64,000 bases of DNA, taken from Cloeon dipterum (lineage: Eukaryota; Arthropoda; Insecta; Ephemeroptera; Baetidae). The stretch covers positions 11,966,001 through 12,030,000 of the forward strand of contig NC_088788.1 in NCBI RefSeq assembly GCF_949628265.1, in the 5' to 3' direction. A model generated the notes under the pieces. The model did no database searches and was not told the DNA's origin. It saw nothing but the letters and a program-made list of their open reading frames with translations. Below are positions 22,561 to 61,309 of the stretch, in pieces (positions within the stretch are counted from its first letter, which is position 1; each line of letters starts with the position of its first letter). A program made the position numbers and the translations under genes.

Positions 22561-22796
22561 TTTGTCTTGATTAGGAGACAGAGCTTCCAAATTTTGAAAA
22601 TAGTGAGTTTTGGTACACTAATATGCAAATTTAAAATCTATTTTGAGGTGTAGTTTTCCACTCTCAAGGCTCCAAGTTCAGTGACTTTCACAATTTACCC
22701 CTCTCGAATTTTGTGGCTCATTTAAAATGTTCCAAGGACTCCTAATTTTATTTTTTTCCATTTCTCACCATTCCAGACTGATATCCGCTGGCAAAT

Positions 22797-23669
22797 ATGA
22801 GCAGCAACTACCTGGATAATTTAGCCAGTTCAAGAGAGAACTGGCTCAATAAACTTGAGGGATTGAACATCAACCGCACAGACATGAACAAACTTATCAT
22901 GAACTACCTTGTCACTGGTAAAACCGCATTTTTAAAAAGCATTATTCAAGGTTCTAAATTTGGTTCCAAAGAGGGGTTTAAGGAGGCTGCTGAAAAATTC
23001 AAACAAGAGTCTGGTGTGGAGCCAACAGTCGATTTGAACTCGCTAGACCACCGAATTCGCGTTCGGGACGCCATCCAAGCAGGAAACATCCAGGCTGCCG
23101 TCGCCATGGTCAACGAACTGCACCCTGAGCTGCTGGACAATGACAGATTCCTCTATTTCCATCTTCAGGTATATTGTAGCGAGTTTTATTAGGAAAGAAA
23201 ATAATATTTTGATATAAATTTGCAGCAATTGCAACTGATCGAATTGATCAGGGCAGGACGCGTCGAGGAAGCGCTTGGTTATGCCCAGGAGCACTTGTGT
23301 GAGGCTGCTGAAGAAGACAAAGCTGTTCTCTCTGAACTGGAGCGAACACTTGCCCTTCTCGGCTTTGAGCAGCCAGAACAATGCCCTTTCAGTGATTTGC
23401 TGCAGCCAGCACACAGGCAAAAGGTAGACAGTTGATAATTTATTGGTCGTGGCTGTGAAAAATAATAATTGTCCATTTTAAAGGTTGCCAGTGAACTGAA
23501 CGCGGCGATTTTGCGCATGGAAGACCAAGAGGCAACCTCTCCCAAGCTGGCTGACTTGTTGAGGCTGATTCTGTGGGCGCAGGAGGAGCTGGACAAGAAG
23601 AAAATCAAGTATCCAAAAATGGTGGACCTGGCCGACGCTAAAATAGACAAAGTGGACATGTCTAAGTGA
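22797..23669 (+). CDS. GID8: GID8 homologue, CTLH/GID E3 ligase scaffold subunit, 251 aa
   Basis: GID8 (TWA1) is a core scaffold subunit of the GID/CTLH E3 ubiquitin ligase, linking the RING module to RanBPM-type subunits in nucleus and cytoplasm. Three coding exons: 22797-23168, 23226-23423 and 23484-23669, with 57- and 60-nt GT-AG introns in phase 0. A LisH motif lies near residues 28-60, CTLH at about 65-122 and the CRA segment after it. Family sequence is plain in [40 protein letters not shown] and [17 protein letters not shown]. The length is close to the vertebrate 228 aa, with a slightly longer tail. A leader intron is likely (donor at 22603, acceptor ending at 22776), placing the ATG 20 nt into exon 2 of the transcript. 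Convergent with NUP35. Confidence 0.96.
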
Positions 23670-24084: not shown

Positions 24085-26246
24085 TTACCATCCAAAAACA
24101 TAATCCATAGCTTTGGAAACCACGCCAGTAGATTTTCTCGGAAGAACTGACGACTCCACCTAATGACGAAACACGTCATATTTAAATTTTATCTTATTGT
24201 TAGTTGATTGTAAACTCACAGAAATATCTGGGCTGGCAGCAAGTGATCTAATACTGGAGTTCAACGGGCTGCCATAGACTGGCGAGTTGAGGCAGGACGT
24301 GTTAGCTGCCGAGGAGGAGTAAATGAAAGTGCCGCCAGCTTCTGAAAAGCTGTTGTTTGGCCCAGGAGACGACATCATCTTGTTCCTCCACCCTTGCACA
24401 ATAGCCTGGTGATTAGGAAAATTACAAAGTTAGCAAAATTCAAGCAGTTGTCTTGTCTCGAGACTGATTTACAGGGATAGTAAATTTTGCAACACCTAAA
24501 ATTCTGCGTTAATGTTTTTGGCACTGCAACGAAGTGATAAATAAATATTTTTTATTTGAAAAACTATAGGAAAACTTGGGAGAGAGGTTAAAATTTATAG
24601 TGAAAAAATGTTTTGAAATTTTATGATCACTGACAGCACAGTTTAAAAAATTGCATCTTTAATTTTTGGATCATATTTCTTGGTCTATAAATATCTCTTA
24701 ACAAGCCAGATTAAATTAGATTTAAATTTAAAGACAACGGTTCAGGGTAAGTTAATTATCAGATTTCGTGATAATTCAGAAATTCAGTAATTAAATAGAA
24801 AAATGCGCTGAAAATACACCAATGCTGTTCTTTCAAATAATATAAAAGAAAGTAACTCTTAACAAATAATATTTTTGGGTAGTAACTTCTGCACCACAGA
24901 CCAAAAAGGCTTAACCTTGGTTTGACTAGGCCTTTAATCAAGCATTTCATATTCATGATTAAGGTATTAAGGTGGGAATTGAGGTGGTACTGAGAAAATT
25001 TCAGGGTTCAAAAAAGCGGTAGTTAAAATAAATGCAGTGCTATTTTATATTTATTTCTAATTTATGCGGAGATTTATAATCTACCCTCCGACTTAGACTT
25101 GGAAGCTGGCATCAGAACAGAAAATTAAAAGGCAATTATATGAAATTTAAACTGTCAAAAAATGGCTTTCAAGCTCTGCGCTGATTTACTAGGAACAGGT
25201 AGCAAAATTCTCGTAACGCACAGGATCAATAAACCATACGAAAAAATATTACCCTATCTGTACAAGGAACCACAGCAATCATAGTGTCAAGCCCAAGGAG
25301 ACCGCCGTGTCGACCGAGCGCTCGCCTGGCCTCTGCAGGGTTGGCAAATCTCAGGTGAAGCCAATTGGCCTTGGGAGAAGTTGGCACGTGCCGCACAACA
25401 ATGTTTCCGCAGCTGGAGATCCACGTCAGTACAGCAGGTACCATTGTAAAGGGGAATCCAAAAACAGTGACCCAGTGCTCGCCTTCCTTGTTTTCGTCAT
25501 TTGTATCCCTATGATCGGTTTTGAGAAAAAACTGTTCGTGTCCATAATTTAAAACAGCTCTTACCAATCACTGAATGAGGGCGACACCATATTCTCTGCA
25601 GTTCTAATAGAGGTGTTGTTCAGACTTTGTCCAAAACTGGTGTTGCTCAACTGGCTTTGGTTGAAGGCCAGGCTCTGATTGGAAGAAAAGCTTGCGTTTT
25701 GCTGGCTCAGGATGCTCTGATTTTGGAATGAAGTGTTTGTAACGTCGCTCAAGCTCATTATTGGAGGCCCTCGTTTTTGAGGCGAAGCAGCACCGGCCTG
25801 TGCATTTCCAGCCAAACTGCATCGAAAGAGAGATTTCAAACATTGAATTGGTAAAAATCGTGATTCATTGGATGATTTCTTATTTCACACTAGCGCACCA
25901 TCCTAGGACTCCAGGATAGTATTTTAACCGTGTGTTCAAATAAATAACTACCGTGCTCTAAGTGGATTGAGCGGGGACCCTGAGTAGGGCGAGTTGAGTT
26001 GGCCACTGTGCGAGTACACGTCAGGAGCAAAAGACACTCTGCGTGTTGTCTGCGTTGAAGTTGGAGTGTTTGATTTTTCAAGAGAGGATGGGTTCTGGAA
26101 AAGAGGAAGTTTGTATTAACATCATTTCTGTCACGAGATGTCCAAAAACATGCCTTGTTTGTTGCTGATGTGGGATCTCCCATCAGAAATCCTGGTACAA
26201 AAGCTGGGCTCACATTGCCAGGGGATCCTAGTGCCATTGGTTCCAT
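24085..26246 (-). CDS. NUP35: Nucleoporin Nup35 (Nup53 family), 334 aa
   Basis: Nup35/Nup53 is a nuclear pore inner-ring protein that binds Nup93, Nup155 and the nuclear membrane. Six exons on the minus strand: 26246-26154, 26094-25952, 25816-25565, 25508-25253, 24405-24220 and 24159-24085; all phases agree. The N-terminus MEPMALGSP and PGFLMGD are family hallmarks. The middle is Asn/Ser/Gln-rich, with sparse FG. The MPPN/RRM fold spans about residues 171-247 (HWVTVFGFPF, then CGNIVVRHV, NWLHLRFANP and IAVVPC). The C-terminus VSKAMDYVFGW is the membrane-binding amphipathic helix, matching the vertebrate KAMEYMFGW ending. Length agrees with the human protein (326 aa). Intron 1 (26153-26095, 59 nt) begins with GC instead of GT. 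A leader acceptor probably lies just before the ATG (TTTTTAG ending near 26254). Confidence 0.95.
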
Positions 26247-39701: not shown

Positions 39702-40799
39702 CTACCAGCCTGAAACAAAATTGAAATCAGAAATAAGAAACCATGAAGACAATTTTAAATTAAACTAAAGCAGCACCTTTGGAGCCTCCTCCGATGCTGC
39801 CGCCTCCGTATCCTCCAGAGCCTCCGCCGGACCAGCCGCCGTGACCTCCGCCGATGCTACCACCGCCATATCCGCCTCCGATGCTGCCACCCCCATATCC
39901 GCCTCCGATGCTGCCACCGCCATATCCGCCCCCGATGCTGCCACCGCCGACCTGCTTCCAGCCGCTGGAACCGCCTCCGATGCCACCGCTTCCGCCTCCG
40001 ACCTTCCATCCACTGCTACCGCCGCCGAGACCGCCGCTTCCGTATCCACCGCTGCCGCCTCCAAGGCTCCAGCCGCTGCCGCCGCCTCCCTGCTTCCATC
40101 CTCCGGAGCCACCTCCGAATCCGCCGCCGAGGCCTCCGCCGCCGATCTTCCATCCTCCAGAGCCACCTCCAATTCCGGAGCCGCCTCCCAAGTTCCAGCC
40201 TGAGGAGCCACCTCCAAGTCCAGAGCCGCCTCCCAAGTTCCAGCCTGAAGAGCCGCCTCCGAGTCCAGAGCCACCTCCCAGCTTCCATCCGCCGCTTCCG
40301 CCTCCAGAGCTCAAGCCATGGCTGCCGCCTCCGTATCCACCGCCTCCATAGCCGCCACCGCCGCCGCCGCCGGATCCGTAACCACCGCCTCCGACGCTCT
40401 TGACAATGACTACCTTAGCAAACTGCGGGGCGCCGCCTCCAACGCCTGAAAAAATAATTAAAAAGGCCGCACTCGAAACTGGTTGAAATCGACTTACCAC
40501 CTCCTGAACCACCGGACCAGCCTCCGTGTCCGCCGCCGCCGCCACCGCCGGATCCAAAGCTACCGCCTCCGTAGCCGCCGCCACCATGTCCACCACCGCC
40601 GCCTCCACTTAATCCACCTGTTGATTCATTAAATTGTTATTAAATAATGCCACTTGGAGAAATGAATTAGCGACTTACCATAAGCCTGGCTGATGGCGAC
40701 GGAGATCACAGCAGCGATAATAAAGAGCTGGAAATTTTGTGAATTGTTATTAAAATTGAACAAAAAAAATTAGTCAAGATTTATACGCCTTACCTTCAT
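39702..40799 (-). CDS. Glycine-rich secreted structural protein, copy 1, 283 aa
   Basis: Five exons on the minus strand: 40799-40794 (Met-Lys), 40727-40679, 40617-40498, 40445-39777 and 39709-39702. The signal peptide is MKLFIIAAVISVAISQAYG. The mature protein is over half glycine: a Gly/His/Tyr block, one non-repetitive stretch (APQFAKVVIVKSV), then tandem GGGSxGW(K/N)xGGGSG units and GYGGGSIGG units. This is typical of cuticular or cell-surface structural proteins of insects; extracellular location is inferred from the signal peptide. The last junction (donor AAAG|GTGCTG, 67-nt intron) is chosen because it ends the protein GGGSKGW, completing the repeat unit. Read-through would instead give a KGAALV tail and a stop at 39760. 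Tandem duplicate of the gene at 42854-43802. Confidence 0.82.
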
Positions 40800-42853: not shown

Positions 42854-43802
42854 TTACCACCAGCCTGGAACAAAGCAGAAATTGAAATTAGAAACCATGA
42901 AGACAATTTTAAATTAAACTAAAGCCGCACCTTTGGAGCCTCCTCCGATGCTGCCGCCTCCGTATCCACCAGAGCCGCCGCCGGACCAGCCGCCGTGACC
43001 TCCGCCGATGCTACCGCCGCCATATCCGCCTCCGATACTGCCACCGCCGAATCCGCGACCGGCCGGCTGCCAGCCGCTGGAGCCGCCTCCGTATCCGCCG
43101 CTTCCGTATCCGCCGCTGCCGCCTCCAAGGCTCCAGCCGCTGCCGCCGCCTCCCTGCTTCCATCCTCCGGAGCCACCTCCGAATCCGCCGCTAAGGCCTC
43201 CTCCGCCGATCTTCCAGCCTCCGGAGCCACCTCCAAGTCCAGAGCCGCCTCCCAGGCTCCAGCCGCGGCTGCCGCCTCCGTATCCGCCGCTACCGCCTCC
43301 GGCGCTCCAGCCGCGGCTGCCGCCTCCGTAGCCACCACCTCCGTATCCGCCGCCGCCGGATCCAAATCCACCGCCTCCACCGCTCTTGACAATGATCACC
43401 TTAGCGATCTGCGGGGCGCCGCCTCCAAAGCCTGAAATAAATAATTAAAAATCCGCTCTCGAAACTGGTTGGAATCATCTTACCACCTCCTGAACCACCG
43501 GACCAGCCGCGTCCACCGCCACCTCCGGACCAGCCTCCATGTCCGCCGCCGCCGGATCCAAAACCACCGCCGCCGTAGCCGCCGCCACCATATCCGCCAC
43601 CGCCGCCTCCGCTAAATCCGCCTGTTCGAATATTAAAATATTATTAAATTCCCAGCACGGAGAGATGAATGAGCGACAAACCATAAGCCTGGCTGATGGC
43701 GACGGAGATCACCGCAGCGATAATAAAGAGCTGGAATTTTTTGGATTGGTGTCAAAATTGAATAACTGAATTTGCAAATTGCTATTCACGCCTTACCTTC
43801 AT
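42854..43802 (-). CDS. Glycine-rich secreted structural protein, copy 2, 234 aa
   Basis: Five exons on the minus strand: 43802-43797, 43730-43682, 43621-43484, 43431-42931 and 42864-42854. The signal peptide is identical to copy 1, the following Gly block is slightly longer (GRGWSGGSGG), the non-repetitive motif is APQIAKVIIVKS, and the repeat domain is shorter by about 55 residues. With the inferred last intron (66 nt, weak donor AAAG|GTGCGG) the protein ends GGGSKGWW; read-through would end KGAALV at 42914. The exon 2 donor is GTTTGT where copy 1 has GTAAGT. Tyr, Trp and Gly richness again suggests a cross-linkable cuticular or surface protein. Repeat number is the main difference between copies, as expected for unequal exchange in Gly repeats. 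Confidence 0.82.
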
Positions 43803-51351: not shown

Positions 51352-52313
51352 AAGGACTCAACCGACTGGATGTTTTTAGTCTTCTTAATGTGGCACCAAA
51401 GGACAGCCTTGAATCAGTTGCAACTGCCCAAACAACGAAAAAAGGTGGCAACAAGGACTGACGTTACAATATAAAGACAAGCATCTCATATTGAGAAGCG
51501 AGTTATCACCTTTTGTTTCACGGAGTATTCTGCCTTTTAATTTATTTATGTTGGTTATGTTTTGTTGCTGAAGTTTCTTAACATCAAATCGTATAAATTG
51601 GAAATGTTCTGAATGTTTTCATTTTTTTGAATAAGTGGAATAAAACTAGAAAGATCTAAAGCGTGTTTATAGTTTTATAAAAGTGTCATAGATACAAAAT
51701 CGTCAACAAAAACAGGAATACACATTTTAGAGGAAATCAAAACAATATTATAATATATGGCCCAAGTTTGGTAAGAGGGCAGTAGATGGTGGTTATTTTG
51801 TTATTAAACCTAGTGACATTTTATGATATTAATTAAATAGGCATGATTAGGAAGATTTAATTGACCATTTGCACTTGTATTGCATTATTAATGCACAGCC
51901 AAATCCACGTTTGATGAATTTGAACGAAACATTTACAGTGGTGTTAATCATTTGTACCATCAGCAACGAGATGAACTTAGGTTAGTAAGACGAGACTCAA
52001 CTTAAACTAAAAAAATCAATCCAAATAATAAATTGCATAGCTAGGAATGTACCTCTCTGTGGCTTAATAATCGCCACGCAGACGCAAATGGTCAATTGGT
52101 ACAAAAATATTTGCTTGTACAATTTTTCATCAAAATATGACTGGATGAGTTTTGTCGTGAATATTAATCACATTGTCGTAAATACACGCACATTAATTTA
52201 TGATACAAATTTCGAGCTGTGGAGCTCTCTTTGACATCTATAGGCGTAACATTTTTTTCAACATCAATCGCGATAGTATGTTGAACATTCAGTATCATAA
52301 TGGGCTAAAAACA
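51352..52313. other. Convergent 3' spacer between cornichon and GMF
   Basis: AT-rich. Holds the 3' UTR of cornichon, with AATAAA at 51639-51644 on the plus strand, and presumably that of GMF. No other gene is seen. Confidence 0.55.
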
Positions 52314-53230
52314 CTACTTGCTCAACTTTTCGCGGAGCCACTCTTCCGTCAACTCCTCCAGTTCGCGCACCTCGTACACACGGGTGAGATCAGCCTCCCG
52401 TTGCAGAGCCATTTTGGTCCCGGCGTACATGATCTGCAGCTCAATCTGGCTGTCTGAGTTTGGAATTAGCAAAAAGCTGAGATGAGTGAATTTAAATTAT
52501 ACCCCTTGGTGTGATGTAAATGAAACACATGGGATAGGAAATCCGCCCGTCACTGTGCTCCATCTTGTAGCTGTAGATGACATATCGAGGCTGATGTGAA
52601 GGTAAAGATTCTCTCAACTCATCGACACTGACATCCTCGAAAAGCTCGTCAACGCATATGCACTGCTTTGCACGGTCAACTTTCACTGATGAAAAGAAAT
52701 TTAAGCATTTTCGGAATCAAACAAAGATTTAGTTTTAATTACAGACAAGAGCGGCGTTGTCCTTTGGCTTTCGAAAGCGAAATTCTTTCAGCTTTGCTTT
52801 CAGGCTGTCATCGATGTCGCAGACTTTCACGTTGTGAGTCTAAAATTGAGACAGAGCGAAATTTAATTGTGTGTAAAATTAGATTCATTCCAATTCTCAA
52901 ATTATGGGTGTTCCAATAGGTACTCACAATATAAACTTTGAAAACAAAGAAATTAACCCATGTTATTATTATTCAGGGTAAAATAAATTATTCGAAAACA
53001 AATAATAGTACATAAATTTAATATTTAATAGAGCAACAAATCAATATTAGATAATAATGCATAATTATTGCTTCATCCTGACATGACATGTATGTACTTG
53101 TGAGTCATGCACTCCAGCGTACGGATATGCATAGGGGAGTTGATAATACATACATACACGGGAAATGAAAATTTTATATTGACTCTTTTACTTTTAAAGG
53201 ACAAGAGGGAGAGTAAAAATAACAAACCAT
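52314..53230 (-). CDS. GMF: Glia maturation factor homologue, ADF-H protein, 140 aa
   Basis: GMF belongs to the ADF/cofilin-homology family; it binds the Arp2/3 complex, promotes debranching of actin networks and restrains nucleation. Exons on the minus strand: 53230-53228 (ATG only), 52839-52743, 52685-52503 and 52453-52314. Family sequence: KLKEFRFRKPKDNAALV, DVSVDELRESLPSHQPRYVI, DGRISYPMCFIYITPRDSQI, ELQIMYAGTKMALQREADLT and LTEEWLREKL. The TPRDSQIELQ stretch matches Drosophila GMF. Length agrees with the family (138-142 aa). The three downstream exons are secure. The isolated ATG exon (ATG|GTTTGT) is inferred because the second exon opens in phase 0 at THNVKVCD with no upstream Met; an ATG-only first exon is also known in cofilin genes. 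Divergent from MED17 copy 1. Confidence 0.9.
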
Positions 53231-53768
53231 GATTGATCAAGGGTTGATCTTGATAAAGAGAGCGAGATTACTAAGCGAAGAACCTGTAAACGTAGAGAGC
53301 GAGTCGAAATTTGATCTTTTCAGACTTCTGAGTGCTTCAGAGATCTCGTCATAAACAATACGGATCCAGCAATCTAGACAAAACAGAGGATGCAGTGGCC
53401 ACGCCCATCAATTTCCTCGCCCGCCCCGCCAGATGGCAATACTGCAACAACAACAGAAAAACTCTGCAGCAGAAGCAGAGCAGCAGAGCAGAAGTGAGCA
53501 GAAGTAACTACTACCGGTTATTAATCCAGTTACGGTTGAATCCTGTAAAAAACAAGCCAAATTAACGGTTGTGTACCTTTAAAGTCGGTGTAATCACTAA
53601 TCACTAGTTTGAGAGAGAGCAAGAGAGAGAGAGAGGGAGGGAGAGAATCAAAACTGAAGTTTGCCATGACAACAACAAACTGAAATGCGAAATTTCGGGC
53701 TGCGTTTGATTCAAGCGTGATTAGCAATTTAGAAAATTCCTAACCTACGCATATTGAATTTTGTCGAA
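53231..53768. promoter_or_regulatory. Bidirectional promoter region of GMF and MED17 copy 1
   Basis: About 540 bp between the two inferred starts, without a TATA box near either gene. A GA-rich tract (53611-53646) lies about 125 bp before the MED17 ATG and is the only such tract in the right half of the window. Confidence 0.45.
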
Positions 53769-56307
53769 ATGTCGGCGTATTCTGTTAATATTTCTGTGGA
53801 GGCGCCAGTGGAAAACCAAATTCAGGAGATCACCTACGATGGACAAGAAATTTACACTCCGTAAGAATTTCTAAGCCGGCTTTTTCTATCCATTTAAACA
53901 ATGCTCATCCTTTTCCAGGCCTCTTACTATGTCAGAACACCTGACGAAATTGGCACAGAAAATTGATTTTGCCAAATGCGGGCCGGAGGAGCTGAACAAA
54001 GAAATCACTGAAATAGACAAAAACGAAGATGAGGCAGAGCAGTCGACGGCACCTCCACTCTGGCCGTGGGATTCTGTCAGGAATAAACTTAGAAATGCAC
54101 TGACTGAAGTGTCCGTCTTGGCCGATGTTCTGTCGATTGCCAAGGAAAAGCACTACATGGTGCTGGACCCTGTTCCTCAGGAACCGCCAGAGCTGAAGCC
54201 AATGGTGCAAGTTTATGCTAGGAAGAAAGCTCTCGCTGGCGCTGCCTCGGTATTGCTCTCAGGTGCCGATCGCCTCAAGAACTTGCAGGCAGAGGCACTG
54301 AGGAACAGAACAACACCGGATTTTCACATTGAACTGCTCCGATTACGTCAGAACTTCAGACTAAAAAAAGTTTCGAATTCTATTGTAGGCGATTTAAGCT
54401 ATAGAACAGGTGGGATATGATATGCTGGCTTAAATCTATTCATTTTCTAATATTTTTGTTTGTAGCTGGTTCCAAATTTGCGCAAAATGGAACGTTTGAA
54501 GTTACAAAGGCTGAGGAGGATGGAGATAGTCCTCTCAGTCCACCATGTTCTCCCAACGCTAGTTTGTCCAATAAACCGACCTCTGCGTTAAGGGTGACAG
54601 TTCCAAGTGAACTGCAAGGAGTAGCTTTCATAAAAGTCTTCTTCCAAAAAGGTTTGTTTATTTTTTAATCAAAATTTTCAACGCATCATGAAATTTTTTT
54701 ATATTTATTCTTCAGATCAAGATTCATTGACAGCCGCTCAGCTAAATTTGCCCTCGTCAAGCACTGCCAACGCGATTCCTGACATGTACTGGCAGCCTAA
54801 ACTTGAAGCAGCGCAGAATGTTTTGTTTTGCAAGGAACTCTTCAACCAGCTAGCCAAGGATGCTGTGCAGCTGCAGTCTCCCATTCCTCATATTGTCGTT
54901 GGAAATCAAATTATTGCATCAGTAAGTACTTGTCCTATTTTAAACCTTTGTATGAGTTTAGGTGGCGATTGAATGAAACACGATGATAACTACTCTACAT
55001 AATTTGAGCTAGTGTCCGAATTAGTGTGTGATTTCTGGCCTTTTGTTAGGGAAAAAAATCAAAATATTAATTTCTTGCGCTAGAAATTGGTAGAAAAAAA
55101 TGACATACACCGAATAGTAAGAAAATGCAACCCTGATATTTTCATATTATCTTTTCTGTTAGAAACGGGCAATCGTACTGCGAGTTTTTAACTTTGGTTC
55201 TTTATAGGTTTTGCCTGGTATCCAACTGGTCATCGGTTTGTGCCATAGCGGTGTTTCCACAGACGGAAAAACCGCTGTCGTCCCTCCCTCAAGCAACGGG
55301 CATGACCACGTCTTGGAGCACTCTCTGCACCAGCTGTTGAGGGAGCTGCACCACAAGAACACCCACCACCCCTTTCCGCATCCGTCATCAGGTCCAATCG
55401 GACCGAGCAAAAGGCGCCGCCTCGCCGGGCCTTGCGCCGTGGACCGCGAGGAGCTCATGCAAATGACCCAGTCAGAGACAATGCTTGAACAAGTAAAAAT
55501 GATTTTATTTTTGCTTGCTTATTTAATAAGTCTGATGTTAATTCAGGTCATCAAGCAAGCGCAGCACATCAACCTCCGCGACCGGACCCTCTTTGTTCTC
55601 GATCGGCTCGCCAAGGATATCAAAGATCCTCTCATCACATCTCATTGGAATGCACTCAACTCTCCCACGCAGTCGTGCGTGAAAATTAACATAGTTGCCC
55701 ACATGTACGACACGATTTGCCGCACATCCCTTCTCATCCACGTGAACGAAACCACCCTCAAGTGCATCACTCGCGATGGCAGAGTGATTCACATGTCGTA
55801 CGAATCTCAGGAGTTGCGGGACTTCATCATGTGTCAGGTTGTTTGGCGGATTAATCGCCTCGAAACTTTTAAATAATGATATCTGTTCATGCAGGTTTAT
55901 CTACACCAAATGACCGCCGTGCAGAACCTGGCAAAGTGCATGGGCTGGCAGTGCTTGGCCAACAGCGCGCAGCTCGGCGTGGGCGCCGTTGAGCCATTTG
56001 GCAACGCGAGCAGCTGCGTCCTCGCGTCGCCAACAGGAGAGAGGTGCGTTGAGTCTTTTTATGTTTATACCTGTTCTGAAAGTTGTTTTGCGTCAGGCTC
56101 ATCTCTGTCCGCTGCGAACCGAAGTCTGGAGTACATGTCACGATTGCGCAGTCGCCAAGAAAAGATTTCTTTCCAGGGCAGTTGGTCAAGGAGCGGAAAT
56201 GGGAGAATCTCGGTGGCAGTTTCAAAGAAGTGAGATGGGACAAAATGGAAGGGAAAAATTTTCTGAACAAAATGGAGCTGTTAATGGCTAGCTTGACTAG
56301 CTCCTAA
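53769..56307 (+). CDS. MED17: Mediator subunit 17, copy 1, 636 aa
   Basis: MED17 is an essential scaffold of the Mediator head module, needed for RNA polymerase II pre-initiation complex assembly. Eight exons: 53769-53860, 53919-54409, 54466-54651, 54716-54921, 55208-55492, 55547-55837, 55895-56043 and 56097-56307; all phases agree. Family hallmarks in order: [146 protein letters not shown] and the C-terminal [20 protein letters not shown]. Length matches Drosophila and human MED17 (about 640-650 aa). No stop, frameshift or lost splice site is seen. A second complete copy follows 1.65 kb downstream in the same orientation. Confidence 0.96.
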
Positions 56308-57956
56308 TCATATATGGAGGGGAGAGAGGGATAATTTATGAACTGCAGCTCCTTGCTTGAGTATTCAATTATTTTTTCGTTACTTTGTGATATAAACTCA
56401 ATTTGTATCTCAATAGAGGCAGCTCTTGCTTTCAGCTATGCCTCACAATGAAAAAATGATGTTATTGGTTTGGATCAAAAATTAAATTTTGATTGTTTGC
56501 AAAACTTTTTGTATCTGAAGTAACCAATAACTTTAAAATGAAATTGATGGTCATATTATACTTAAATGGGTTTGACCTAAATTGTAGCTGTCTTAAGGAA
56601 TGTGACTAACTGATTTTGCTTAACACTGCAAGTGTTTTGATTAGTTATTTATTATTTTTGGTTAAAATATTGAAATTGATTAAATCGAAAACAATTATTT
56701 GAACTTTTTTCTGTCTTGGCTGATTAATTTGATCGTTTTACTTACATTTCAATTAATCTTAAAACTAATGGCTGCATTGAAACATTTTTCAGCCTAGTTA
56801 GCACACATCATCTTTGCTAATCTTGCCATAACATCAAAATTGACACCCACAAAGTCGTTTGACTTTGTTTTCCTAAGTGACTGAAAAGACTTGCAAAATG
56901 TCATTGCAAAAATGAAGGGTGTATTTAATGATCATACAAATAAGATATGGCAATTTGATGTACGAATTTAGTGAAATGGAATATGGAATATTGCTTGAAT
57001 TTATTTATAAGTTGTGGTTTCTCGGTAAATTGCGCTGGTCTAATGTTGAACAATACTTGTAGTATTTTTTTCAATTTAGAAAGTTGGCTTTGTTTTGTGA
57101 CGTCAACGAGAAAACTATCTGTCCACCTTTTGTGCTATGTCATAGTATGAACTTTAATGTGAGGAAAATTATGGTTGACTTAACCAAATTGTGGAGTCCT
57201 TAAATTTAAATACTGTCCATAATTTTTGTGTGAGTTATAATACCAACTAGTGAAAGATACTTAGGCAATGTGAATTTTGCAAACGTAAATTTGAAGAGCT
57301 ACACGTACATATTAAAATTTCTAGTAAATTTAATTAACTATATTAAATTTTTCTGTGTTCACTTGTAATGCATCAAAATGAATGTTATCTTTCGCAATAA
57401 ATAGATTTAAAAATTTGGAACAGAAATATCCATAGTGTGCTTTTCCTTCCCATTTCTTCATAATCTTAAAATTTAATTAAAATATTATGTACTTTCCTGA
57501 ATATAATCAGACAAGTTTTTTTAAATTTTGAATGTAAAAAATATTCGCGCCAGCTAAATTCAAACCTGTTAGAGCTGGTTGCAGGTGGAAGGGGTGTGTG
57601 GGTGTGCTTATTTTGTTGCCTGAAGCCTGAAGATATGAGAAGAACAGACTGAACTGAGTACAATTTAGCAGTTTTATTTTTATTTGAAGTATTTTATTTC
57701 GTTTTGATAAAACTCGATAGGTATGCTGTAGTTTTAATGTATGAATAATATATAAATCCTCTAAAATTTGTCCGTACAAAATTATTGAATTTCTTTAGGA
57801 AAAAGTTCCGGTCAGAAATCAACACCGACCTTTTCGTGTATATTAATTCGAACTACATTTCCCTAAAACTAGCACCCTGAAACATGTTCTTTATTATAAC
57901 TGTCAAATCTTATCTTTAGTTCTTTGCGTTTTTCAGTGGCAATTCAGAAATTAATC
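56308..57956. other. Spacer between the MED17 copies
   Basis: AT-rich. The first plus-strand AATAAA I find after copy 1 is at 57396-57401, so copy 1 may have a 1.1-kb 3' UTR. No gene is seen; the promoter of copy 2 must lie in the last few hundred bases. TTTTTCAG just before 57937 could be the acceptor of a leader intron. Confidence 0.5.
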
Positions 57957-60226
57957 ATGTCCACGAACTCAACAAGTATTGCCATGGAGGCGCCTGTTGA
58001 AATGCAGATCCAGGAGATCGCCTTCGATGGACAAGAGACATATGCGCCGTAAAATTTATTTGCAGGCTTTTTAATTATATTTTAACATTGAATTTATGTT
58101 ATCAGATCTCTTTCTATGTCAGAAAACTTGACAAAATTGGCCCAAAAAATTGATTTTGCCAAATGTGGGCCGGAGGAGGTGAACAAAGAAATCACAGAGA
58201 TCGACAGGAACGAAGATGAAGCAGAACAATCGACGGCACCTCCACTCTGGCCGTGGGATTCTGTCAGGAACAAACTGAGAAATGCTCTGACTGAAGTGTC
58301 TGTCTTGTCCGATCTTCTGACTATCGCTAAGGGCAAGAAATACGTGGTTTTAGACCCTGTTCCCCAGGATCCACCCGAGCCTAAACCCGCAATGATGATG
58401 GTGTGGGCTAGGAAGAAATCTTTCGCTGGCGCTGCCTCGGTGTTGTTCTCTGGTGCCGAACGCTTAAAGAACTCTCTGATCGAGGCCCAGAAAAATAGGT
58501 CAACTACAGCTGATTTTCACATTGAGCTACTCAGGCTTCGACAGAATTTCAGGCTCAAAAAAGTTAACAACACGATAATCGGTGACCTAAGCTATTATCG
58601 ATCATGTAAAATATATTTAATTAGATGTTCAACAAATTTGGTAATAAAAATATTTTCTGTGTAGCTGGGTCAAAGCATTTTCATAGAGGGACATTTGAAG
58701 TTACCAAGTCTGAGGATGAGCCGGACAAACTTCTCAGTCCACCTTGCTCTCCAAATCCAAATTCCGCAAACAAGCTTACCTCCGCGCTTCGAGTTACAGT
58801 ACCAGGTGAACTCCAGGGAATCGCATCAATCAAAGTGTACTTCCAGAAAGGTAATAAATTCTGTCATAATTGTCACTGATCCAATAATAAAAGTTGACGA
58901 AATGTACAGATCAAGACTCATTATGCTCGTCAAATCTGAACACGCCCGACACAGCCTTCTCCATCCCAGAAATTGACTGGCAACGAAAGCTTGAAGTGGC
59001 TCAAAACGTGCTGTTCTGCAAGGAGATATTCAACCAGCTGGCAAAAGAAGCTGTCCAGCTGCAATCTCCCATCCCCCACGTAGTTGTGGGAAACCAAATC
59101 CTTGCCTCGGTAAAAATCAATTAAATCCATTGCTGTTCTGGCAAATTATAATAATTTTTTACCTCACTCAGATTTTCCCTGGAGTGCAATTGGTGATCTG
59201 TTTGTCCCACATGGAAATGTCGACAGACGGCAAAGCGTCTCTGCCGCCGCCCATCCCCAGACATGACCAAGTGCTGGAGCACACCCTGCACCAGCTGCTG
59301 CGTGAGCTGCACGAAAAAAACGCACACTATCTGCTGCCCCACCCCGCGTCGGCGCCTCTGGGGCCGAGTAGGAAGCGCAGTTGTGCCGGACCCTATGCCA
59401 TGGATAGGGAGGAGTTTGTGGAGATGACCGAGTCGCAAACAATGCTCGAGCAGGTTATCCAGCAAGCCCAGCACACCCAACTCCGCGACCGCACCCTTTG
59501 CATCCTGGACAAGCTCGCCACGCAGTACAAAGACCCTCTCATCTCCGTGCACTGGCTCTGGCTCAACTCGCCAACCTATGCGTGCATCAAGGTCACCATC
59601 TTTGCACAAGGCTACGACGAGATTTACAGGAATTTGGTAATCATTCATGTCCACGATACTTATCTCAAGTGCATTTCAAGAGACGGAAAAGTCGTTCAAT
59701 TGTCCTATGAGTCTATGGAGCTGAAAAACTATATCTTGTGCCAGGTAAATTTGGTACTATCAAGAATCCTTGTTAGTATCTAAAGGTTTTTTTTTACAGA
59801 TTTGTCGACATCAAATCATGGCTGTCCAATACCTGGCTAAGGCCATGGGCTGGCAGTGTGTGGCCAATAGTTTCAACCTGGGAAGTGGGACGCTTGTTGA
59901 AACATTTGGAAACGCGAGTAGCTGCATTCTCGTGTCACCGGTTGGCGATAGGTTTGCAACATAATATTTTAATAAATAATTTCCTATAACCGACCTGAAA
60001 TTCAAGGTTGATTTCAATACACTGCGATCAAAATTCAAGAGTGCAAGTTTCAGTCGCCCAGACTCCAAGAAAAGACTTCTTCCCGGGACAGTTGGTCAAA
60101 GAGCGTAAGTGGGAAAATCTTGGCAACAGTTTCAAAGAGGTACAGTGGGAAAAGATGATTGGGAAGAATTTCCTCGGCAAAATGGAGCTGCTCATGACTA
60201 GTTTAACAAGCTCTTGGATGCAATAA
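57957..60226 (+). CDS. MED17: Mediator subunit 17, copy 2, 640 aa
   Basis: A second full-length MED17 with seven exons: 57957-58048, 58106-58605, 58665-58850, 58910-59109, 59172-59744, 59800-59951 and 60007-60226; introns are 55-62 nt and all phases agree. Exon limits match copy 1 except that exons 5 and 6 of copy 1 are one exon here. The start region reads [15 protein letters not shown]; then [99 protein letters not shown] and the C-terminal [20 protein letters not shown]. Differences from copy 1 are spread but conservative, with family-conserved positions kept, which argues against a pseudogene. Whether it assembles into Mediator everywhere or in a tissue-specific form cannot be read from sequence. 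Confidence 0.95.
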
Positions 60227-60276
60227 AGCAGAAACACTGACGACAATACTTTGGTGCTTACAACGTTGATGTTGAA

Positions 60277-60282
60277 AATAAA
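60277..60282 (+). terminator. Poly(A) signal of MED17 copy 2
   Basis: AATAAA 50 nt after the stop codon. Confidence 0.7.
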
Positions 60283-60309
60283 ATTAATTTTTTCAATTAA
60301 TACATTTCT

Positions 60310-60315
60310 TTTATT
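60310..60315 (-). terminator. Candidate poly(A) signal of the GalNAc-transferase gene
   Basis: Minus-strand AATAAA. If used, the GalNAc-transferase 3' UTR is about 1 kb (60.3-61.3 kb) and ends almost against the MED17 copy 2 transcript. I saw no closer AATAAA on that strand, but variant signals are possible. Confidence 0.4.
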
Positions 60316-61309
60316 TGAATTTTTTCACAAAAAACTAATAATTTAGATGAATAATCGCAACGATCAAATTCTAAATTATTAACAAATAACAGAAATTATC
60401 TGTCCTGGCAGAAAAAAAATAGGGAAACATCTGATGGGATACCAAGACATGATAAGAGATACACTGAAATGACTCCCAACACCAAAAAAATAAAGAACAA
60501 AAAACTCAACTGGTTTGCTAAATGCGTGCATAAATAAACAGTGCTGGCACAATAATTTATAAAACTTCACTTAATATCAAGAATACTGAGGACAGTTGTC
60601 AGGCACTACAATGATATGCTGTCTGCTGTGCAATTTGATCAGAGAGTAATTAAACTTGCAGCAATAATTACTTTCACTCGAAAAGTAGTAACGAGATAAA
60701 AAGGGATCTATAATCCTTAGTGAATAGCAATAATAGGGAAAATTGCATACCAAAAGGTTTTAAGTTCTCATCAAAGTTTGTCCAACATTAAAGATAATTC
60801 TTGAGCACAATATTTGTACTCATCAGAGAAAGGTTTCACTACTACTGCTCCTGTGCTCTCACGGAATTCAAAAGTGCAACTGCAATCCATGCTTTGATAA
60901 GGAACATTAATTAGAAAATTGAATATTGAACAACAATTTAGCTTGATCTCGCAAGTGTTACAATTAGAGAACAGGGCACACACACAGAAGGTCTCATTTG
61001 GATCCATGTCTCACAGTGCAAAAAGGAAGGTGCAGTTAATTGAGAAAATGATTAGAGCAAACAATTTGATTATCTCTGCTAATTTTATGCTACCGAATAT
61101 TCAGTTGGAATATTAGTTTGTGTTTTTAACAACCGCTCCACTTTAGACCCTGTGCTTTTCCCCAAAATGGCCATATCACAGTTATACAGCAATTAAAATT
61201 GTTGACACTCAAGAGTTTGTAAAAAGTCACTTGTAGGTGCACAATTCCATTGGCAGTCCAGCTGGGATAGAACTGGAGAGTATCAAACGCGACGATGGTG
61301 CACCAAAAA

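What the first reader, a model, noticed from the sequence alone, without database searches (positions are those of the whole stretch)
53769..60226. Two complete, intact tandem copies of MED17
MED17 is a core Mediator head subunit, normally single copy in animals. Here two same-strand copies, 4.2 kb apart, both keep every coding exon, splice junction and family-conserved block. Their exon limits are the same apart from one intron, so the second is a DNA-level duplicate and not a retrocopy. Two maintained copies raise the possibility of subfunctionalised Mediator (for example germline versus soma) or dosage selection.
Basis: partly seen in the sequence, partly recalled or inferred. Interest (0 to 1): 0.75.

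Follow-up and report, generated by a model that had tools for sequence, protein, structure and literature searches.

The report
Old tandem pair of MED17 genes
An unnamed animal carries two intact side-by-side genes for MED17, a core part of the machinery that switches genes on; both appear to have been kept by selection for a long time, but what the second copy does is not known.

Summary
Two complete MED17 genes lie head to tail on the + strand: copy 1 at 53769-56307 (8 coding exons, 636 aa) and copy 2 at 57957-60226 (7 exons, 640 aa). Six intron positions and phases are shared, so copy 2 is a DNA-level duplicate; a seventh intron is in copy 1 only. Both match solved MED17 over nearly their whole length. 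The genome search shows no third copy.

The proteins are 70% identical, silent sites are near saturation (dS about 2.2 outside exon 2's tract) and dN/dS is about 0.1. Allelic haplotypes or an old pseudogene are very unlikely. Codons 45-156 are much less diverged at silent sites (p 0.0015), most simply old gene conversion.

Seven partner subunits each show one credible locus, so a separate second head module is not indicated. Copy 2 may change faster in its C-terminal half (28 v 11); over the whole protein the difference is not significant. A copy-specific role is plausible but untested. Interest is modest: an unusual paralogue of a familiar kind.

The parts
53769..56307 (+). MED17 copy 1: coding exons 53769-53860, 53919-54409, 54466-54651, 54716-54921, 55208-55492, 55547-55837, 55895-56043, 56097-56307; 636 aa
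   Evidence: splicing by hand-chosen sites; Pfam Med17, 21.9 bits v cut-off 21; PDB MED17 chains, E 1.1e-162 to 9.8e-166
57957..60226 (+). MED17 copy 2: coding exons 57957-58048, 58106-58605, 58665-58850, 58910-59109, 59172-59744, 59800-59951, 60007-60226; 640 aa
   Evidence: Pfam Med17, 21.2 bits v cut-off 21; PDB MED17 chains, E 8.8e-148 to 1.6e-150
55493..55546 (+). 54-base phase-0 intron of copy 1 with no counterpart in copy 2 (lost in copy 2 or gained in copy 1; direction not settled)
53959..54294 (+). low-synonymous-divergence tract in exon 2 of copy 1 (codons 45-156); the matching stretch of copy 2 is 58146-58484; likely gene conversion
   Evidence: window coordinates worked out by hand from the codon numbers and exon starts
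56308..57956 (+). spacer between the copies (copy 1 3' end and copy 2 promoter region)
   Evidence: 56320-57950 matches only itself in the genome search, which skips simple repeats and very common words; AATAAA/ATTAAA sites listed

Best explanation
An old tandem duplication of one whole MED17 gene. The copies diverged at silent sites to near saturation and both were kept intact by purifying selection; one intron differs between them; a stretch of exon 2 was later homogenised, most simply by gene conversion. Copy 1 looks somewhat closer to the ancestral protein. (Shown from sequence: structure, divergence, average constraint, the tract. Inferred: that the tract is conversion, and which copy is more ancestral-like.) Both proteins most likely fill the same MED17 slot at the centre of the Mediator head with the same partners, and so compete for it (inferred). 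The most likely reason both persist is division of expression, copy 2 in a restricted tissue or stage, with some tuning of the C-terminal half; this last step is inferred and untested and I put it at about 0.4. The confidence given below is for the old, constrained tandem duplicate, not for that last step.
For: Six shared intron positions and phases. No stops, GT-AG at all introns, exon length differences all multiples of 3. ML pairwise omega 0.121 overall and 0.097 outside codons 35-150; against omega = 1, 2dlnL 325.9 and 301.4. If silent change is split evenly, copy 2's average omega is at most about 0.24 overall or 0.19 outside the tract (arithmetic). Neutral simulation: 15 of 500 runs had no stop at 0.05 subs/site, 1 of 500 at 0.1, 0 of 500 at each of the five larger distances. 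Near-complete alignment to solved MED17. Tract: 65 of 89 same-residue degenerate codons identical inside v 155 of 341 outside, permutation p 0.0015; 4-fold sites 29 of 42 v 57 of 149 (p 0.0007), chance 0.254. Among positions not conserved with human the copies agree at 38 of 58 inside v 151 of 318 outside (p 0.015). No third copy seen. Seven partner subunits each at one credible locus. Residues 331-636: copy 2 alone departs from the copy 1 = human residue at 28 columns, copy 1 alone at 11 (p 0.009 uncorrected; three regions were compared, so about 0.03 corrected).
Against: No transcript evidence for either copy. Over the whole protein the rate asymmetry is not significant (44 v 29; exact p 0.10, chi-square p 0.08), and in residues 151-330 it runs the other way (7 v 11). 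dS is saturated outside the tract, so omega and age are rough. Pairwise omega averages both lineages and cannot exclude a recent loss of constraint on copy 2. The codon 35-150 partition was chosen by eye; the scan allows for its own search. Regional silent-site constraint could also lower dS there: three-way conservation with human is slightly higher in the tract (54 of 112 v 203 of 521, p 0.07).
Confidence: 0.85

Rival explanations
1. Assembly artefact: two divergent haplotypes of one MED17 laid end to end.
For: Read depth cannot be checked with these tools.
Against: dS 1.55 overall and 2.20 outside codons 35-150, 187 of 633 aligned residues different, one intron differing, and no repeat outside the coding units longer than 26 bases in 52300-61000. 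Allelic haplotypes are not expected to differ this much (general knowledge).
Confidence: 0.02
2. Copy 2 is a recently released or decaying pseudogene that still looks intact.
For: Copy 2 scores 48-52 bits lower than copy 1 against the same three PDB MED17 sequences and departs more in residues 331-636.
Against: No stop, and GT-AG at all introns; exon length differences all multiples of 3; neutral drift of only 0.05 subs/site left no stop in 15 of 500 runs; omega about 0.1.
Confidence: 0.06
3. Both copies are interchangeable and kept for dosage only.
For: No second locus of seven partner subunits seen; a conversion-like tract homogenising part of the proteins; whole-protein asymmetry not significant.
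Against: 30% protein divergence. Raising one subunit alone should not make more of a complex whose other parts are single copy (inference).
Confidence: 0.25
4. The exon 2 tract is regional silent-site constraint (for example an embedded regulatory or RNA element) and not gene conversion.
For: Three-way protein conservation is slightly higher in the tract (p 0.07).
Against: Positions not conserved with human are also unusually alike between the copies (p 0.015); no Rfam family reaches its gathering score in the window, which speaks only to described families.
Confidence: 0.25

Closest known systems
MED17 (Mediator head subunit; PDB chains 7emf_Q, 8t1i_L, 6w1s_L; that these are human, mouse and mouse is recalled, not printed by the tool)
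   Same: Both copies align over residues 5-634/635 to the two longer chains; 49% (copy 1) and 47% (copy 2) identical to 7emf_Q over 612 three-way columns.
   Different: Two genes here. Copy 2 ends three residues beyond copy 1. In the alignment both copies lack 12 residues of the human N-terminal linker and carry an 11-residue S/P/N-rich insertion after the GTFEV block.
med31l and med13b, extra Mediator paralogues of fishes (PMC13069492; abstract and passages seen, 12 of 35 places shown)
   Same: Extra paralogue of a Mediator subunit retained in one lineage; the abstract names tandem duplication among the potential origins of med31l, a core subunit.
   Different: Different subunits; med13b is ascribed to the teleost genome duplication. 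'Med17' occurs 0 times in that main text.
MED12/MED12L, MED13/MED13L, CDK8/CDK19 of vertebrates (PMC12732463; passages seen, 12 of 18 places shown)
   Same: Duplicated Mediator subunits.
   Different: Those are in the dissociable kinase module; MED17 is in the core.
Testis TAFs of Drosophila and Mediator recruitment (PMC4666660; passages seen, 12 of 15 places shown)
   Same: Precedent for tissue-specific homologues of core transcription machinery.
   Different: The passages seen describe TAF homologues and tMAC parts, not a MED17 paralogue; Med17 itself is used in the testis there.

Membership tests
MED17 | Pfam Med17 (PF10156) over the curated cut-off | tested here: met
   Copy 1 21.9 and copy 2 21.2 bits, cut-off 21; both marginal
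MED17 | Near full-length similarity to experimentally solved MED17 | tested here: met
   Three of three PDB sequences hit by each copy, best E 9.8e-166 and 1.6e-150
MED17 | Incorporation into the Mediator head with MED6/8/11/18/20/22 | not testable with these tools
   Partner loci exist in the genome; binding is untested
Functional tandem duplicate gene | Intact frame, splice sites and shared introns | tested here: met
Functional tandem duplicate gene | Purifying selection on both copies | tested here: met
   Pairwise omega about 0.1; the bound for copy 2 is arithmetic under an even split, no branch test was possible
Functional tandem duplicate gene | Transcription of both copies | not testable with these tools
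   No RNA data held
Retrocopy | Loss of all introns | tested here: not met
   Copy 2 keeps six introns
Allelic haplotype artefact | Low synonymous divergence | tested here: not met
   dS 1.55 overall

The most novel reading that the evidence does not exclude
Copy 2 defines an alternative form of Mediator in this lineage: a second MED17, expressed in a restricted tissue (for example the germ line), that swaps into the same head and retunes activator or polymerase contacts through its faster-changing C-terminal half, while exon 2 is kept alike by conversion because it binds shared single-copy partners.
Probability: 0.25. Interest if true: 0.6.

Novelty: new member of a known kind. Interest (0 to 1): 0.33.

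Why it matters
Med17 is described as a hub of the complex, with deletion lethal in yeast (passages of PMC4770211). A natural, long-maintained second copy would allow a test of whether Mediator composition can differ between tissues through a core structural subunit, not only through the kinase module. If the copies prove redundant it is an ordinary retained tandem duplicate.

Tried and rejected
The Pfam Med17 search of the own genome at its default threshold (E<=0.001) returned nothing although both genes are there, probably because exons are scored one by one; a protein search replaced it. The partner-subunit searches are of the same exon-by-exon kind, run at E<=1, so 'one credible locus' means 'as far as this search shows'. 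Weak extra places were taken as chance because they fell below the family cut-off: MED6 on C4 (E 0.32, one in-frame stop) and MED8 at C1:4501441 (E 0.71). For MED11 and MED14 only one of two places passes the cut-off, the other lying close by in the same orientation; the MED11 search also rang, below cut-off, in 2 of 14 bacterial control genomes.

Related sequences: bacterial/archaeal genome contigs and viral contigs gave no MED17 relative (0 of 302 and 0 of 84 pattern matches confirmed). No outgroup coding sequence or near relative was therefore available; one outgroup protein (7emf_Q) served the rate test.

Naming the species: paper searches by assembly size found nothing usable. and passages of a Cloeon dipterum paper followed a guess and gave no evidence either way. 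No call names the taxon; 'animal' is inferred from the gene content. One paper recalled by DOI is not held. A search for testis-specific Mediator paralogues led only to PMC4666660.

Structure prediction was not attempted: the stated rule accepts proteins read letter for letter from the DNA, and these are spliced.

Considered and dropped: retrocopy (introns shared); a repeat-borne promoter for copy 2 (the spacer matches only itself, in a search that skips simple repeats and very common words); a known RNA element in the tract (no Rfam hit at gathering scores).

Full report
The finding. The two genes were spliced at GT-AG sites that I chose by eye from the sequence and from similarity between the copies (copy 1 stop corrected to 56307). 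Copy 1 runs 53769-56307 with 8 coding exons and 636 aa; copy 2 runs 57957-60226 with 7 coding exons and 640 aa. Neither has an internal stop. Six introns coincide in alignment column and phase; the remaining intron of copy 1 (55493-55546, the fifth of seven, phase 0) is absent from copy 2, where the coding sequence runs on in frame. Exon lengths differ by 0, +9, 0, -6, -3, +3 and +9 bases, while introns differ freely (58/57, 56/59, 64/59, 286/62, 57/55 and 53/55 bases). This is the pattern of two working genes and of DNA-level duplication.

Identity. Pfam Med17 is just over its curated cut-off in both (21.9 and 21.2 bits v 21). The better evidence is phmmer against solved structures: each copy hits three of three distinct MED17 sequences, copy 1 at E 1.1e-162 to 9.8e-166 and copy 2 at E 8.8e-148 to 1.6e-150, over residues 5-634 and 5-635 for the two longer chains. 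Which chain is human or mouse is recalled; the tool does not print it. Over 612 three-way columns copy 1 is 49.2% and copy 2 46.7% identical to 7emf_Q, called human below. The leucine at human position 371 (a disease position by recall only; the terms L371P and Leu371 do not occur in the review) is kept in both copies (alignment, position).

Copy number. A protein search of the window's own genome (190,111,064 bases, 10 contigs) at E<=1 gave 14 matches, all 14 within these two genes. The spacer 56320-57950 matches only itself (simple repeats and very common words are skipped). Families for MED6, MED18, MED20, MED22, MED8, MED11 and MED14 each gave one credible locus. The caveat is that this exon-wise family search missed MED17 itself at its default threshold.

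Divergence and selection. The proteins are identical at 446 of 633 aligned positions (70.5%); codon positions 1, 2 and 3 are 78, 88 and 50% identical; NG86 dS is 1.79 and dN 0.19. The 35-150 limits were set by eye. With silent change shared evenly, copy 2's own average omega is at most about 0.24 overall or 0.19 outside the tract (arithmetic). Neutral simulation of one copy: no stop in 15 of 500 runs at 0.05 changes per site, 1 of 500 at 0.1 and 0 of 500 at each of 0.2, 0.275, 0.5, 0.8 and 1.1. A long neutral history for copy 2 is thus very unlikely; a very recent loss of constraint is not excluded.

The exon 2 tract. Silent divergence is uneven: the three 60-codon windows lying within codons 41-140 have pS 0.36-0.47, and windows starting at codon 141 or later have 0.60-0.87. 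A maximal-segment scan puts the tract at codons 45-156 of copy 1: 65 of 89 same-residue degenerate codons identical inside, 155 of 341 outside, permutation p 0.0015 from 20,000 shuffles; 4-fold sites 29 of 42 v 57 of 149 (p 0.0007), chance 0.254. Agreement between the copies is also raised at positions not conserved with human (38 of 58 v 151 of 318, p 0.015), which include a linker with little likeness to human (alignment). Against this, three-way conservation is slightly higher in the tract (54 of 112 v 203 of 521, p 0.07). The simplest reading is an old conversion event; regional constraint is not excluded.

Asymmetry. Against human, copy 2 alone departs at 44 columns and copy 1 alone at 29 (exact p 0.10, chi-square p 0.08, not significant). 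By region (copy 1 numbering, limits set arbitrarily in the script): 1-150 9 v 7, 151-330 7 v 11, 331-636 28 v 11 (p 0.009 uncorrected, about 0.03 for three regions). Copy 1 is therefore called the more conserved copy with moderate confidence only.

Flanks. In 52300-61000, repeats between the two units start at the ATG and end near the stop; outside them only two short repeats (26 and 23 bases) are listed. In the 600 bases upstream, copy 1 has GAGAGAG repeats and 59% A+T; copy 2 has no such repeat, TATA-like matches at -208 and -206, and 70% A+T. These motif matches are no evidence of function. Neighbours: two cofilin/ADF-type exons on the - strand (52314-52716; read by eye as GMF) and, on the - strand beyond 61.3 kb, a frame with a sub-threshold ricin-lectin match (22.2 v 29 bits) and one over the cut-off for the galactosyltransferase domain Glyco_transf_7C (25.6 v 23 bits). 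The repeat search did not reach the latter gene.

Literature. No animal MED17 duplicate was recognised in the listings seen: 3 of 3 papers, 9 of 9, 10 of 80, none found, 12 of 32. This is not an exhaustive search, and most subscription papers are not held. The abstract and passages of PMC13069492 describe fish med13b and med31l, the latter potentially by tandem duplication in some fishes, as extra Mediator paralogues; passages of PMC12732463 cover the kinase-module paralogues; passages of PMC4666660 describe testis TAFs and Mediator recruitment in Drosophila; passages of PMC4770211 call Med17 a hub and report its deletion lethal in yeast. In soybean, segmental duplication was detected for 65 of 95 Mediator genes and no tandem duplication (passages of PMC6770253).

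Verdict. It is a new member of a known kind, a retained tandem paralogue of a core transcription subunit. A specialised Mediator is the bold reading; it is neither shown nor excluded.

Noticed in passing
window 39760-40608 (-) and 42914-43444 (-): Two neighbouring glycine-rich open frames on the - strand with a shared motif and repeats (read by eye); look like a second tandem duplicate pair; no Pfam match at E<=0.001.
   Followed up: partly
window 22782-23192 (+): LisH/CTLH exon, probably a GID8/TWA1 homologue (domains, name by recall).
   Followed up: partly
window 25226-25567 (-): Nup35-type RRM exon.
   Followed up: partly
window 53611-53646: GAGA-rich stretch about 120-160 bases upstream of the copy 1 ATG, between it and the divergent cofilin/ADF-type gene; no GAGAGAG in the 600 bases upstream of copy 2.
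   Followed up: no
window 55493-55546: Single-intron difference between the copies at a CAR|GT junction; loss in copy 2 and gain in copy 1 cannot be told apart without relatives.
   Followed up: partly
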